Source: Phycisphaeraceae bacterium
GTDB taxonomy: Bacteria; Planctomycetota; Phycisphaerae; Phycisphaerales; UBA1924
Length of the DNA: 64,000 nucleotides
NCBI GenBank assembly: GCA_019636675.1
Contig: JAHBXC010000002.1
Location: forward strand, 682,001-746,000
Reading direction: 5' to 3'
The notes under the pieces were generated by a model. It was not told the DNA's origin and made no database searches. It was given only the letters and a program-made list of their open reading frames with translations. Below are positions 15,532 through 21,184 of this stretch, piece after piece (position 1 is the first letter of the stretch; every line of letters starts with the position of its first letter). Made by a program: the position numbers and the translations under genes.

Positions 15532-16326
15532 TTAGTCCAGCGCAGCAACCGCCTGCTCGTATCTTGTGAAGAACGACTCGAGATACCTCGGGTTCTTCTC
15601 GCGCTGGGGCGCGATGTCCGGGGGCAGTTCGATGGTCCGATCGGCGATGCGCTGTTTGGTCTCGGGAGAGAGCGACGAGAGGATCGCGCGGGTGTCGTCT
15701 TCAGTAAGCGTGGGGTACCATTCGGGGTCGGGTTGCGGCATCGTGGCAACGATCCACTGCAGAATCTCGGGCTGTTCACGAAGGTGGCGTCTTGCCTCGA
15801 GCAGTTCGTCATGTCGTTGGGTGAGAGCAAGCCGCTCAAGGCGGACGCGCCACGCCGAGACCGTGAACCACGGGTCGGGAGGATTCTCAAGGGCCGCGCG
15901 CAGCGCCCGCGGCTCGCGCGGGAGACTCGCGACCCAGTGGGTGAGGCACATCTGGTACTCTTCGCCCACGGTAGGGTTGTATTGAGGAACCAGGAGCCCG
16001 TGCCGACCCTCCAGCACGAGACGGGGCAACCCCACGCGAGGATCCTCGACCAGCCATTTGGCTTCAAGGAGCAGGTCGGGGTGACACTGATAACTGGCCG
16101 CATCAATGCCGAGACTCACCGTCTCGGCGTCATCACTGCGCAGCATGTTGAGGATCTCTGCGGGCGTCGAGGATCGTGCGGCGTCGATCCGCTCCCACAT
16201 AGCGGGATTCACGGTCTTGAGACGGGACACTTCGAAGTCAGTCCAAGGGATCCCGATCGGGAGGGGACCCCCGGGCTGCGCAAGAAGCAGAGCGCCGAGC
16301 AGGATGATCGAAGGGCATGGGGTCAT
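15532..16326 (-). CDS. Tandem secreted paralogue 1 (unknown family)
   Basis: The last gene of a five-gene minus-strand operon, 264 residues with an N-terminal signal peptide (CPSIILLGALLLAQPGG). The body contains the block shared by the set: MLRSDDAETVSLGIDAASYQ followed by CHPDLLLEAKWL, a Trp-rich middle (DPWFTVSAWRVRLERLAL), LQWIVATMPQ, and the C-terminal ILSSLSPETKQRIADRTIEL with YLESFFTRYEQA. It is probably all-helical. I know no function. Its ATG overlaps the upstream stop by four bases (ATGA), indicating translational coupling. Confidence 0.75.
   Translation of the reverse strand: MTPCPSIILLGALLLAQPGGPLPIGIPWTDFEVSRLKTVNPAMWERIDAARSSTPAEILNMLRSDDAETVSLGIDAASYQCHPDLLLEAKWLVEDPRVGLPRLVLEGRHGLLVPQYNPTVGEEYQMCLTHWVASLPREPRALRAALENPPDPWFTVSAWRVRLERLALTQRHDELLEARRHLREQPEILQWIVATMPQPDPEWYPTLTEDDTRAILSSLSPETKQRIADRTIELPPDIAPQREKNPRYLESFFTRYEQAVAALD
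15610..15663. repeat. 54-bp identical segment, copy 1
   Basis: Identical over 54 bases to 17243-17296, inside the 3' parts of paralogue genes 1 and 3. The intervening gene 2 is more diverged here. Confidence 0.9.
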
Positions 16327-17141
16327 GGCCGGATGTCAGGACGAGCGGGAGCGGCGGTCAGTTCGTCGTAGCGATCGAACAACGATTCCAAGAAGCGCCG
16401 CGCCCCGCTCTCGCGTCGGAGTTGGTAGTCCTTCGGCAGTTCGATGGTGCGGTCGGCGATGCGCTGCTTGGTCTCGGGTGAGAGCGAGTCGAGGACGGCC
16501 TTGATCTCGGCTTCGGTGAACGCGGGGCGGGTCTTGGGATTGCTCTGCGGAAGTGTGACGAGAATCCATTGAAGACTCTCTGGCTTTCGCTGCAACTCGC
16601 GCTTGGCTTGTGCAAGCTCCTCGGCCCGTTGTCCGCTCGAGAGGGCATCGAGTCGGAGTCGCCAGGGCCCCACTTCCGCCCAAGGGTCGGGCTTCGCAGC
16701 GAGGGCGGCACGCAGCGGCTCATCATCCTGCGGAAGGCTGTGAAACCAGAAGAGGAGTTCGCCTGCATACTCCTGCCCGATCCGGAACGGAGGAAGGTCA
16801 GGAAACACCTTCCCAGTGCCCGGGTCGATCACGAGGCGAGGGAGGGCCTCGCGAGTGTCTCCGACGAGCCACGACGCTTCGACGAGCAGATCGGGGCGAC
16901 ACCGATAACTCGCGGCGTCGATGCCGAGGCTGACGACCTTGGAGTCGTCATGCCGGAGCATGGCGCGTATGTCATCGACCGAGGCGGCCCGCGCCCGGAA
17001 GACCGGCTCGGCCTGGGCCGGATCGATGCGTTCGAGCGCGTCCAGCGAAAACCTGACGAAGGGGGTCCCGAGCGCAGTGAGAGGCGCATCCGCGATCGGA
17101 GCGGTGATGATGAAGGACAGGATGACCAGCGGCGAGATCAT
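16323..17141 (-). CDS. Tandem secreted paralogue 2 (unknown family)
   Basis: A 272-residue exported protein (signal peptide SPLVILSFIITAPIADA). It has the family blocks: IRAMLRHDDSKVVSLGIDAA, CRPDLLVEASWLVGD, DPWAEVGPWRLRLDALS, LQWILVTLPQ and LDSLSPETKQRIADRTIELP, ending with FLESLFDRYDELTA. It is more diverged from paralogues 1 and 3 than they are from each other. Start and stop each overlap neighbours by four bases, so it is read in the same operon. Function unknown. Confidence 0.75.
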   Translation of the reverse strand: MISPLVILSFIITAPIADAPLTALGTPFVRFSLDALERIDPAQAEPVFRARAASVDDIRAMLRHDDSKVVSLGIDAASYRCRPDLLVEASWLVGDTREALPRLVIDPGTGKVFPDLPPFRIGQEYAGELLFWFHSLPQDDEPLRAALAAKPDPWAEVGPWRLRLDALSSGQRAEELAQAKRELQRKPESLQWILVTLPQSNPKTRPAFTEAEIKAVLDSLSPETKQRIADRTIELPKDYQLRRESGARRFLESLFDRYDELTAAPARPDIRP

Positions 17142-17977
17142 GGTCGGTTTGGCTCGGGCGACGCGCTACCCAGCGCAGCAACCGCCTGCTCATACCTGGC
17201 GAAGAACGACTCCAGATACTGCGGGTTCTTCTCGCGGAGAGTCGCGATGTCCGGGGGCAGTTCGATGGTCCGATCGGCGATGCGCTGTTTGGTCTCAGGG
17301 GAGAGGGACGAGAGGATCGCGCGGATGTCGTCTTCGGTGAGCGTGGGCCGCTCTCGGTTCAGTGGCGGCCTCATGGCGACGATCCACTGCAGAGTCTCGG
17401 GCTGCTCTCGCAGGTGTCGCCTTGCCTCGAGGAGTTCTTCCGTGCGTTGCTCCGAAGCGAGGCGTTCCAGCCGCACCCGCCACGCGGAGGAATAGTGCCA
17501 CGGGTCGGGCCGTGCTTCGAGCGCGGCACGGAGCGCCGCCGGCTCATACGGCAAACCCCGCATCCAGAACCCAAGCGTCTCGCGGAAGTACTCCCCGATC
17601 GTGGGCGTGTCCTGCACGACCAACTCCCCCTGGAGCGCCTCCTGCGTCAGCCGAGGAAGTCCGGCCCGGGCATCGCCGATGAGCCACACGGCTTCGATCA
17701 ACAGGTCAGGCCGGCACTGCGCGCTCGCCGCGTAGATCGCGAGACTGACGACTTTGGGGTCATTGCTCCGGAGCATCTCACGGACGCGATCCGGTTCGGA
17801 TCGTCGGGCGTCGTCGATTTGAGCCCATGCAAGATGATCAACCTCGGCAAGGCGTTCAGCGACGAGGTGATTGGTCGGAATGCCTGCCAGCAGGGAAGGC
17901 TCGACGGTGATCGCCGTGGGCGGCGCAGACCCGCTGGAGACCGCCGCGAGCAGGATGGTCAGTGACTTCGCGATCAC
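17138..17977 (-). CDS. Tandem secreted paralogue 3 (unknown family)
   Basis: A 279-residue exported protein. The GTG at 17977 is called as start because it opens directly on a signal peptide (IAKSLTILLAAVSSGSA) and leaves a 22-base gap to the previous gene; the ATG at 18076 would overlap that gene by 77 bases and add an Arg-rich, non-signal tail. Family blocks: VREMLRSNDPKVVSLAIYAA, CRPDLLIEAVWLIGD, DPWHYSSAWRVRLERLA, LQWIVAMRPP, ILSSLSPETKQRIADRTIEL. The C-terminal half is nearly identical to paralogue 1, including a 54-base perfect DNA match. Confidence 0.72.
   Translation of the reverse strand: MIAKSLTILLAAVSSGSAPPTAITVEPSLLAGIPTNHLVAERLAEVDHLAWAQIDDARRSEPDRVREMLRSNDPKVVSLAIYAASAQCRPDLLIEAVWLIGDARAGLPRLTQEALQGELVVQDTPTIGEYFRETLGFWMRGLPYEPAALRAALEARPDPWHYSSAWRVRLERLASEQRTEELLEARRHLREQPETLQWIVAMRPPLNRERPTLTEDDIRAILSSLSPETKQRIADRTIELPPDIATLREKNPQYLESFFARYEQAVAALGSASPEPNRP
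17243..17296. repeat. 54-bp identical segment, copy 2
   Basis: Second copy of the segment at 15610-15663; flanking sequence is also highly similar. Confidence 0.9.
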
Positions 17978-17999
17978 AGGGAACCTGTCATAGCAATGA

Positions 18000-18884
18000 T
18001 CACTTGTCCCGTTTCCACCACTCCGGCGGCGTCCACGACGCTCGGCGCCAGAGGGCGGTGCGTGGAGGGGGCGCATCGATCAACTCGCCGGCCAGCACCA
18101 TGTCGTGGAGCTTGTAGAAGCTCTCGAGGTGTTCCGGGCTTTGACGCAGATTCGGGGTCATGGCGGGAACGGGCAGCGCCTTCGCGTCGATCGCGGCGCG
18201 GGTGTTTGGCGAGAGTTGGGCGATGATCTCGCGCGCCTCGTCCGGGCTGTATTGCTGCTGGGTGTGGAAGCTCTCCATCAGGATGAGCCACCGCAAGTTC
18301 TCGGGGAGCAGCGCGATCTCGGCTTTCAGACGCTCCAGCGGATCGGGCTCGGTCGTCAGACGAAGCCGAGTGACCCACGGGGTGGAGACCGCCCAGGGGT
18401 CCACGCCGTCCAGAAGTTCAGCGAACTGCTGCCTCGTGGCGATCCGCACACCGAACCACTGGTTGTACGCGGCGCGGAGCGTTGCGGCGACCGTACGGTC
18501 TTCCGCGACGAAGGGCTGGCGTCTTGAGATCGCCGGGGATATGCACAGCGGCACAGAGAGGCGGGTGTCGTCGAGGAGGTGGGAGAGCGTGAGCAGGCGG
18601 TCGGGGCGGTGCTGCTCGCTCAGGGCAAAGATCGCGACGCCGAGAGCGCGAGGGTCGTCCGACGCGAGCAGCAGGTCAATCTCGGGCTCGCTGAGCCGCG
18701 CCGCGACGCCGAGCGGGTCGACGAGTTCGAGCGGCGTGCCGCTTATGGAGTTGCTTGACGGCAGCATGGTCACCCTGGCGACGAGATCGCGAAGGGGATC
18801 GGGGAGCGATCCGAGAGCCGGCGCCGGCGCGGCGAGCATCAGCAGAGTTGTCACGAGCATCCAAAGTCTTTGCGGCATCGTCAT
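18000..18884 (-). CDS. Tandem secreted paralogue 4, diverged
   Basis: A 294-residue exported protein with signal peptide MTMPQRLWMLVTTLLMLAAP. It shares the layout of the other three (LLASDDPRALGVAIFALSEQ, HRPDRLLTLSHLLDD, DPWAVSTPWVTRLRL, LRWLILM, IIAQLSPNTRAAIDAKAL, HLESFYKLHDM) but has about 25 extra C-terminal residues and is clearly the most divergent. The ATG at 18884 overlaps the upstream TGA by four bases and has GGGGGGAG just upstream. It is the first of the paralogues after the transglutaminase-like protein. Function unknown. Confidence 0.72.
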   Translation of the reverse strand: MTMPQRLWMLVTTLLMLAAPAPALGSLPDPLRDLVARVTMLPSSNSISGTPLELVDPLGVAARLSEPEIDLLLASDDPRALGVAIFALSEQHRPDRLLTLSHLLDDTRLSVPLCISPAISRRQPFVAEDRTVAATLRAAYNQWFGVRIATRQQFAELLDGVDPWAVSTPWVTRLRLTTEPDPLERLKAEIALLPENLRWLILMESFHTQQQYSPDEAREIIAQLSPNTRAAIDAKALPVPAMTPNLRQSPEHLESFYKLHDMVLAGELIDAPPPRTALWRRASWTPPEWWKRDK

Positions 18885-21013
18885 TCTCCCCCCCAAAGTT
18901 CGCACCGCACATCCAGTGCGGCAGGCGCAGGCTTTCTCGACACGGCGAACGGCACATCGGGATCACCCTGATTCAGCAGAAAGGTGTAGAAGCCCTTTAG
19001 GTGCGAGTGCTTCCAAGCCAGCGCAAATATCTGCTCGTTGGCGAGCAGAATCGGACCGATACCGTACGACGGGTCGTACCACGCACCAGCGCCAACTTGT
19101 ACGACGAAATGCCGTGTGTAATGACCGGGCGGCGTCGGGTTGTCCTGCCCCGGCAAGGAGGGACCGAGGACGACATCGTGGACATTCCACGCGCTGCCCT
19201 CGCAGGGGACCTCGGTCCGGAATGGATAAAGACCGCAGCCCGATCCACCGGCCGGCGGAAAGGCGGGATCAGCGAGGATCATGCCAGAGTCTTGAAAGGT
19301 GACATCCGGGCATTGCGGGTGATCCCAGAGGGCCGCGGTCAGGTGCAGCGGGACGATCTCGTAGATGGCGTGAGAAGAGATTCCCTGCACCGAGAGACAC
19401 TGTCTATAGAGTCTAACCCACGCAAGACACTGCCCGTTCGTGTCACTGAGAAGCGTTTCTACATCTGTGGCTGCCGTATTGAAGCCGCACGGGTCGCCTC
19501 TGTAGTAGCCCAAGGTGTGTCCGGAGGCGCTGGTCACGCTGCGATTCTGGAAGGGCAGCCAGATCGTGGCCAGGGCTTCACCCACGGTCGATGAGCCGTC
19601 CCCGGCTTCGCAACTAATCCGGTAGACACTATGGAAGTTCGAGACATCGCCCGGGTCGGCGAGCGTCGTGAAGAGTTCGTGGCTCGTCGAACCCATGCTG
19701 TACCACACACGCTGGCCGTCGAACGAGATCTTCCAAGTCAGCGGGTAGTTCCCGTGGTACGCGATCGTGTTCTCGAGCGGCTCGGGGGCGGTGATCGGTG
19801 TGCTGTTGTCCGTTCTGCCAATGGTGAACTCCTGGCCCCCCGGGCCGATGGCCTTGTAGTAGATCGTCGCTGGCGGGTCGGAGCGGTGGTCCATGGTCAG
19901 GACGGGGACGAACTCGTCGATCGTCACGGTGGCGGCGCGGGTGTAGGCGACCGGGTATCGCCGGTCGGCGCCCTGCGGCGGTGGTGTGATCTCGCCGTCG
20001 TTGTCATCGTCCTTCCAGTGGGGGGCGGCGTACTCGAAGGAGGCGACGCCCGGGCGGGGATCCGACTTGATGAGATGATTGCCGCCGCCGAAGGAAACGG
20101 AGTGGGGGTTTGCCCAGAAGATGTCGACGGTTGTGCCCGTCTCGAACGAGTTGTTCTCGCCGCAGGTACGTTTCGCGCGGAGCTCGTATTGGCCCGGGCT
20201 GCCCGGGGCAATGGTGAAGATCGTGGAGTTCGGCAGGGTCGGTTGAGTGGGAACCACGCCGTTCTCGACCAGATACCAGTCGACAGCGACGAACTGCCCG
20301 ATCGTCAACTCTGCGCGGAGATGGATGTAGCCCACTCCGACGCGGGGGATCTGCGGGATGGAGTGGGGCGGATCGGCTGGTTCGAATGGGTACGCCACCG
20401 TGATATAGAAGCCGCATTCCGGAGGGGGCGGGTTGCCGCCTCCGTTGCCTCCCCCGGGCGGGTTACCGATGCTCCCTGGCCCGCCGTCGCCTGGTCCGCC
20501 CCCGCCGCCGCCGATACCCCCGGGTCCGCCGCCGCCCTCTGGGGGTTCAGGGTCGTCGGGGCCACCACCTGGGCCGGGAATGCCGATGCATTCCCCGGGG
20601 AGGTCGCAGCAGCCACCGAAGGCAATCGGAAAAGCGCAGCAGTTGTTGACTGAAGGGCACCCGCGAGGTGAGGCGGCGACGGTGAGCAGTTCGAGGAGGC
20701 GTGTCAGATCTCGCTCGTCGACCATGCCGTCGCCGGTCAGGTCGGCGCGGGCGTACGCCGCATCGTCCGGTGTGAGGGGCGGCGCGCTGAGGAAGTGCAC
20801 CATCTGCAGCAGGTCTTGCGTGTCGATGAATCCGTCGGCGTTCAGGTCGCCCGTGCGTGGGGGGATGGCGCCGGGCCGGTAGACGATGCGCTTGAGGTTG
20901 CCGGGGCTGGCGTTCGGGCTGGGTTCCGCGCGGGCCGGGCTGAGCGGCGCGAGCGCCGTCGAGACGACCATGGTGAGGAAGGCTGCGGAAAGAACGCTTG
21001 TCTGTTGGCCCAT
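18881..21013 (-). CDS. Secreted dockerin plus transglutaminase-like protein
   Basis: A 710-residue exported protein. Residues 1-29 are a signal peptide. Two Ca-binding loops of dockerin/EF-hand type follow (DLNADGFIDTQD at 56-67, DLTGDGMVDERD at 91-102), then a Cys-rich knot, a Gly/Pro linker (about 146-198) and a large C-terminal region. There NGQCLAWVRLYRQCLSVQGI (Cys529), RHFVVQV (His635) and AWYDPSYG (Asp647) reproduce the order and spacing style of a transglutaminase-like Cys-His-Asp triad. The enzyme type (crosslinking, protease or inactive) is inference. The start ATG 21013 has GGGAGA upstream; it heads the paralogue operon. Confidence 0.7.
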   Translation of the reverse strand: MGQQTSVLSAAFLTMVVSTALAPLSPARAEPSPNASPGNLKRIVYRPGAIPPRTGDLNADGFIDTQDLLQMVHFLSAPPLTPDDAAYARADLTGDGMVDERDLTRLLELLTVAASPRGCPSVNNCCAFPIAFGGCCDLPGECIGIPGPGGGPDDPEPPEGGGGPGGIGGGGGGPGDGGPGSIGNPPGGGNGGGNPPPPECGFYITVAYPFEPADPPHSIPQIPRVGVGYIHLRAELTIGQFVAVDWYLVENGVVPTQPTLPNSTIFTIAPGSPGQYELRAKRTCGENNSFETGTTVDIFWANPHSVSFGGGNHLIKSDPRPGVASFEYAAPHWKDDDNDGEITPPPQGADRRYPVAYTRAATVTIDEFVPVLTMDHRSDPPATIYYKAIGPGGQEFTIGRTDNSTPITAPEPLENTIAYHGNYPLTWKISFDGQRVWYSMGSTSHELFTTLADPGDVSNFHSVYRISCEAGDGSSTVGEALATIWLPFQNRSVTSASGHTLGYYRGDPCGFNTAATDVETLLSDTNGQCLAWVRLYRQCLSVQGISSHAIYEIVPLHLTAALWDHPQCPDVTFQDSGMILADPAFPPAGGSGCGLYPFRTEVPCEGSAWNVHDVVLGPSLPGQDNPTPPGHYTRHFVVQVGAGAWYDPSYGIGPILLANEQIFALAWKHSHLKGFYTFLLNQGDPDVPFAVSRKPAPAALDVRCELWGGE

Positions 21014-21139: not shown

Positions 21140-21184
21140 CTGTCTCAAATCTGTGCTTTTGGACGCCGATCTGTCTCAAATCTG
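21140..21184. repeat. 14-bp direct repeat in divergent intergenic region
   Basis: CTGTCTCAAATCTG occurs at 21140-21153 and again at 21171-21184, 31 bases apart (about three helical turns), between the divergent transglutaminase-like operon and the DUF4097-like pair. It may be a regulator-binding site. A TTGACA on the minus strand at 21077-21082 is a candidate -35 for the operon. Confidence 0.5.

What the first reader, a model, noticed from the sequence alone, without database searches (positions are those of the whole stretch)
15532..21013. Operon of a secreted transglutaminase-like protein and four tandem exported paralogues
Five minus-strand genes are joined by ATGA overlaps (one 22-base gap). 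The first product has two Ca-binding dockerin loops, a Gly-rich linker and an apparent Cys529-His635-Asp647 triad. The other four are 264-294-residue exported proteins of one unrecognised family with conserved LQWI, SLSPETKQRIADRTIEL and YLESFF motifs. One enzyme plus several variant small proteins suggests enzyme and substrates, inhibitors or surface building blocks. This is the best candidate for an undescribed system in the window.
Basis: partly seen in the sequence, partly recalled or inferred. Interest (0 to 1): 0.7.

Follow-up and report, generated by a model that had tools for sequence, protein, structure and literature searches.

The report
Secreted thiol enzyme with exported partner proteins
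A planctomycete bacterium makes a secreted, transglutaminase-like enzyme together with four exported small helical proteins that most likely hold it in check, and this is one case of a widespread, apparently undescribed 'enzyme plus its own exported partner' gene pair.

Summary
The operon is real: an exported 710-aa protein (dockerin, then a two-part C-terminal region with Cys529-His635-Asp647) and four small proteins of one family ('S'), joined by ATGA overlaps and one 22-bp gap. The triad is kept in 26 of 33 relatives, and the Cys helix matches transglutaminase-core proteins above 60 shuffles; the AlphaFold model of the enzyme failed, so the fold is likely, not shown. S proteins are all-helical (pLDDT 84) and in no Pfam/NCBIfam family. 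A second full set lies elsewhere in the genome, and S follows the same enzyme in three further lineages; one S gene stands alone. More generally, in 24 of 26 enzyme loci (background 31 of 275 genes) the next gene encodes an exported protein, from 23 BLAST-level families that track enzyme clades. Best reading: secreted papain/transglutaminase-like thiol enzyme plus dedicated exported inhibitor or immunity protein, as in SpeB-Spi, staphopain-staphostatin or Bacteroides Btp-Bti. Inhibition itself is inferred; subunit or substrate roles remain possible. The dockerin is ordinary here (35 genome hits, no cohesin found). A repeated motif upstream of both operons suggests shared control.

The parts
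18881..21013 (-). Enzyme gene: exported 710-aa protein (P0001)
   Evidence: relatives
20696..20851 (-). Dockerin type I domain (residues 55-106), two Ca-binding loops
   Evidence: Pfam PF00404 E 2.5e-7
20423..20578 (-). Gly/Pro-rich linker (about residues 146-197)
   Evidence: sequence
19574..20116 (-). Conserved N-terminal part of the shared region (VSFGG...YAAPHW.D...YPVAYTR), found in the relatives before the catalytic part
   Evidence: alignments A4/A5
19004..19501 (-). Catalytic region with Cys529 (19427-19429), His635 (19109-19111), Asp647 (19073-19075)
   Evidence: triad in 26 of 33 relatives; profile match to Transglut_core proteins at the Cys helix
18000..18884 (-). S-family exported partner 1 (P0002, 294 aa); the copy closest to the single S proteins of other genomes
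17138..17977 (-). S-family partner 2 (P0003, 279 aa, GTG start)
   Evidence: structure model of this protein pLDDT 84
16323..17141 (-). S-family partner 3 (P0004, 272 aa)
15532..16326 (-). S-family partner 4 (P0005, 264 aa); C-terminal third homogenised with partner 2
21140..21183 (-). Two exact copies of AGATTTGAGACAG, 31 bp apart, 127-170 bp upstream of the enzyme start; candidate operator shared with the second locus

Best explanation
The operon makes a secreted thiol enzyme of the transglutaminase/papain-like superfamily and four versions of a dedicated exported partner that binds it. The enzyme uses Cys529-His635-Asp647 to cleave or transamidate proteins outside the cytoplasm. The S proteins, helical solenoid-like binders translated right after the enzyme, keep it inactive in or on the producing cell (inhibitor or immunity protein), and the extra copies broaden or back up that protection. 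Shown: operon, conserved triad, gene pairing, co-diversification, helical fold of S in a confident model. Inferred: enzyme activity, binding, inhibition, site of action.
For: Second full set in the same genome: enzyme, two longer exported proteins, then four S genes. S directly behind the enzyme also in L045, L046/L047 and L048. In one sample of 397 genomes of the class, 25 have the enzyme, and the 4 with a strong S hit are all among them (chance 1.2e-5). In 24 of 26 enzyme loci the next gene is exported, same strand, within 85 bp, versus 31 of 275 other genes and 13 of 93 other exported genes. Partners fall into 23 BLAST-level families; those seen more than once follow enzyme clades with the fewest changes possible (5 vs 11.3 shuffled). 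Enzyme always first, partner second, also in tandem pairs (L164, L175). Triad conserved; Cys-helix match to Transglut_core proteins, score 31.6 vs null maximum 16.8. S is a confident all-helical model with weak likeness to Armadillo/HEAT binders. Published precedent: secreted papain-like proteases with co-transcribed, mutually unrelated inhibitors, exported in Bacteroides and 4-5 bp behind the protease (PMC3462683).
Against: No direct test of binding, inhibition or activity. Enzyme structure model unusable (pLDDT 36). The His/Asp segment alone does not exceed the shuffled null. One clade of seven (L164a, L171, L175-L179) keeps a partner but lacks His and Asp, so a catalytic inhibitor is not needed there unless that clade is inactive or works differently. 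One S gene (G026) has no enzyme beside it. Weak S hits elsewhere (20-45 bits) are longer, HEAT-like proteins without the enzyme. Export of the partners rests on hydrophobicity alone.
Confidence: 0.45

Rival explanations
1. Enzyme and accessory subunit: the partner is a chaperone, targeting factor or substrate adaptor that the enzyme needs in order to fold, leave the cell or find its target.
For: Strict pairing and co-diversification fit a subunit as well as an inhibitor; solenoid-like partners are typical adaptors; the clade without His and Asp still keeps a partner.
Against: Copy-number expansion to four S genes and an orphan S gene are less expected for a subunit; similar enzymes have unrelated partner families.
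Confidence: 0.23
2. Enzyme and substrates: the S proteins are cross-linked or attached to the surface by the transglutaminase-like enzyme, as building blocks.
For: Transglutaminase-like by profile; several variant small exported proteins per enzyme; many enzymes carry long N-terminal parts with Ig/PKD-like stretches.
Against: No Lys, Gln or Cys column is invariant in the S family; the best Lys column is 10 of 12. Partners of related enzymes are unrelated families, hard to reconcile with one chemistry on a fixed acceptor. S folds as a compact helical domain rather than a low-complexity matrix protein.
Confidence: 0.17
3. Antibacterial polymorphic toxin with a polyimmunity array: a special case of the best explanation in which the enzyme is aimed at competitors and the S proteins are immunity proteins acting outside the cytoplasm.
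For: C-terminal enzyme domain behind variable N-terminal regions, variable cognate partner directly 3', arrays of tandem paralogues, patchy distribution (25 of 397 genomes). Tox-transglutaminase toxins, HEAT-type immunity proteins and homogeneous polyimmunity loci are described (PMC3482391).
Against: No RHS, LXG, Hint or T6SS marker in the proteins scanned; the catalytic region always comes with its own N-terminal domain rather than as a short swapped cassette; no known toxin or immunity family matched.
Confidence: 0.25
4. Chance neighbours in an ordinary operon; no functional pairing.
For: The dockerin protein belongs to a large class in this genome (35 hits).
Against: Adjacency 24/26 against 11% background; second copy in the genome and further lineages.
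Confidence: 0.03

Closest known systems
Bacteroides C10 proteases Btp/Bfp with staphostatin-like inhibitors Bti/Bfi; also SpeB-Spi and staphopain-staphostatin (PMC3462683)
   Same: Secreted papain-like thiol enzyme; partner gene a few bases away; partner exported in Bacteroides; inhibitors of related enzymes unrelated in sequence; an enzyme copy with a lost catalytic residue keeps its partner gene.
   Different: Different enzyme family (C10/C47); S is a 26-30 kDa helical protein, unlike the staphostatins, which resemble lipocalins; inhibition not shown here.
Polymorphic toxin/immunity systems, Tox-transglutaminase class and polyimmunity loci (PMC3482391)
   Same: C-terminal enzyme domain, variable N-terminal part, variable cognate gene 3', tandem arrays of paralogues.
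   Different: Both components have export signals; no recognised trafficking or processing domain, toxin or immunity family; the enzyme region is long and constant (about 400 aa).
Transglut_core superfamily (Pfam PF01841)
   Same: Cys in a G-x-C helix start, then His, then Asp about 12 residues on; profile match at the Cys helix.
   Different: Below Pfam detection in the window protein and nearly all relatives; about 100 residues between Cys and His; its own N-terminal domain.
Cellulosomal or 'planctosome' dockerin/cohesin complexes (PMC6461901)
   Same: Type I dockerin on a secreted protein of a planctomycete.
   Different: No cohesin found in this genome; no dockerin in several relatives of the enzyme (e.g. 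L041, L048).

Membership tests
Transglutaminase-like (PF01841) superfamily | Cys-His-Asp triad in that order, conserved in relatives | tested here: met
   26 of 33 relatives keep all three (L087 doubtful); one clade of seven lacks His and Asp
Transglutaminase-like (PF01841) superfamily | Sequence profile match | tested here: inconclusive
   No Pfam hit for P0001 at E<=10; 2 of 17 relatives, best E 0.039; hhalign score 31.6 vs null max 16.8 around Cys; His/Asp part not above null
Transglutaminase-like (PF01841) superfamily | Papain-like fold | tested here: inconclusive
   AlphaFold model pLDDT 36, not usable
Transglutaminase-like (PF01841) superfamily | Transamidase or protease activity | not testable with these tools
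   needs an assay
Dockerin type I | Two Ca-binding loops matching PF00404 above its cut-off | tested here: met
   31.2 bits vs cut-off 22.9
Cellulosome-type complex | Cohesin partner in the genome | tested here: not met
   PF00963: no hit at E<=0.1 in the 98.6% complete genome
Linked protease-inhibitor pair (SpeB-Spi, staphopain-staphostatin, Btp-Bti type) | Partner gene directly adjacent to and co-oriented with the enzyme across lineages | tested here: met
Linked protease-inhibitor pair (SpeB-Spi, staphopain-staphostatin, Btp-Bti type) | Partner inhibits the enzyme | not testable with these tools
   needs an assay
Polymorphic toxin system | Recognised trafficking/processing N-terminal domain (RHS, TpsA, LXG, Hint etc.) | tested here: not met
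   none in P0001 or in five long relatives by Pfam
Polymorphic toxin system | Variable cognate gene immediately 3' of the effector domain | tested here: met
HEAT/Armadillo solenoid proteins (S family) | Solenoid fold | tested here: inconclusive
   confident all-helical model; weak ARM/HEAT matches Z 5-6, best Z 8.3 to Prp38; no Foldseek match with E below 0.5

The most novel reading that the evidence does not exclude
Planctomycetes and Verrucomicrobia share an undescribed polymorphic system: one secreted thiol-enzyme domain (two active-site subtypes) combined with many N-terminal carriers, and a dedicated exported partner, drawn from more than 20 unrelated families, that is almost always the next gene.
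Probability: 0.55. Interest if true: 0.75.

Novelty: new variant of a known kind. Interest (0 to 1): 0.6.

Why it matters
It links an unannotated, patchily distributed enzyme family with cognate partners across two phyla whose extracellular biology and conflict systems are poorly known. The pairing rule (next gene = partner) gives at once a testable set of more than 20 candidate inhibitor or immunity families, and a natural experiment in how unrelated folds come to bind one enzyme.

Tried and rejected
Pfam, NCBIfam, PADLOC and PHROGs scans gave nothing significant beyond the dockerin of P0001, and no family for the small proteins (the APH hit of P0004 at E 0.004 is below cut-off, partial and not shared by its paralogues). 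Profile searches of PDB sequences with both families: no hit. AlphaFold of the enzyme with seven relatives failed, so no fold search was run with it. Foldseek and VIA searches with the S model gave only generic helical-repeat matches. Viral contigs and plasmids: no relative of the enzyme. Dockerin/cellulosome reading rejected: 35 dockerin hits and no cohesin. Promoter/terminator scan uninformative. Diversifying selection among paralogues: dN/dS below 1 everywhere, with dS near saturation.

Full report
Observation. The first product is a 710-aa protein with a hydrophobic N-terminus, a type I dockerin, a Gly/Pro linker and a C-terminal region with Cys529, His635 and Asp647. The four others are homologous to each other. 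The long shared motif of the last three paralogues is partly recent: P0003 and P0005 have nearly identical C-terminal thirds (dS 0.40) but dS 1.9 in the rest.

Relatives of the enzyme. The genome holds one other copy, and 25 of 397 sampled genomes of the class carry the region or part of it; it also occurs in Verrucomicrobiota. In a search with P0001, none of 36 other genomes of the same family showed more than the dockerin, so the distribution is patchy. Across 33 relatives Cys-His-Asp is kept in 26; one clade of seven retains Cys but not His and Asp. Pfam does not see the domain in P0001, but a profile-profile comparison with 27 ordinary Transglut_core proteins from related genomes aligns Cys on Cys with score 31.6 against at most 16.8 in 60 column shuffles. 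The His/Asp segment by itself is not above the null. The structure prediction failed. A transglutaminase/papain-like enzyme is therefore the likely reading, not a proven one.

The small family S. No family library knows it. The model of P0003 is confident and all helical, with weak likeness to Armadillo/HEAT solenoids. S occurs eight times in this genome: four in the window, and four in the second locus behind the second enzyme and two longer exported proteins. It occurs once behind the enzyme in L048 (PNC21), L045 and L046/L047. P0002, the first S gene of the window, is the one closest to these single copies, so P0003-P0005 look like later duplicates. One S gene in G026 has no enzyme beside it; that genome is 81% complete.

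A general rule. In most enzyme loci without S, the next gene again encodes an exported protein, of another family. With one automatic criterion (same strand, gap up to 85 bp, hydrophobic N-terminus, not multi-spanning) this holds in 24 of 26 enzyme loci, 31 of 275 other genes, and 13 of 93 other exported genes in the same DNA. The two misses (L041, L174) do have a close next gene with a weaker or oddly composed signal. Loci are related to each other, so the p-values (1e-13 or less) are optimistic. Partners form 23 BLAST-level families, and those found more than once follow the enzyme tree with the minimum of 5 changes (shuffled mean 11.3, none of 200 as low). Tandem enzyme-partner-enzyme-partner arrays exist (L164, L175).

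Mechanism. Co-inherited, co-diversifying, exported partners of unrelated families behind a secreted thiol enzyme are what linked inhibitors look like. Published cases are SpeB-Spi, staphopain-staphostatin and the Bacteroides Btp-Bti pairs, where the inhibitors are exported, lie 4-5 bp behind the protease, and where an enzyme copy without its catalytic Cys keeps its partner (PMC3462683). The same genetic logic marks toxin-immunity systems with homogeneous polyimmunity loci, for which transglutaminase toxins and HEAT immunity proteins are described (PMC3482391). The data here do not separate self-protection from competition. A substrate role is less favoured because S has no invariant Lys or Gln and because partners of related enzymes are unrelated. 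A subunit or adaptor role cannot be excluded.

Regulation. Upstream of both loci of this genome stand two copies of an AGATTTGAGACAG-like sequence with a 31-bp period, 122-170 bp before the enzyme start. The exact 13-mer occurs three times in 3.31 Mb, all at these two places. Similar sequences stand next to a few other genes, twice right after a stop codon, so a role as operator is a guess.

The dockerin is common in this genome (35 hits) and no cohesin was found; it does not make this a cellulosome part.

Noticed in passing
window 21140-21183 and L041 2971-3014: Tandem AGATTTGAGACAG-like motif with 31-bp period upstream of both enzyme genes; the exact 13-mer is found nowhere else in the genome. 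A third tandem-like copy lies at G000:C5:54955 right after a stop codon.
   Followed up: partly
L041 5676-6548: The second of the two longer exported proteins (P0014) ends at an in-frame stop; the frame continues with sequence like the C-terminus of its neighbour P0013.
   Followed up: partly
L176-L179, L164 4384-6369, L171 2018-3730, L175 4339-6558: Enzyme clade with GEC at the Cys but without His and Asp, each with a downstream exported partner, in four cases of one family ending in SDPQYF.
   Followed up: partly
L052 3714-8906: 1730-aa protein with an ordinary Transglut_core domain near its N-terminus and the new enzyme region at its C-terminus.
   Followed up: no
L078 10212-11129: Truncated enzyme copy between two paralogous partner genes (315 and 318 aa, 59% identical): a duplicated enzyme-partner pair in decay.
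   Followed up: no
genome G000: 35 dockerin type I hits but no cohesin (PF00963) detected.
   Followed up: yes
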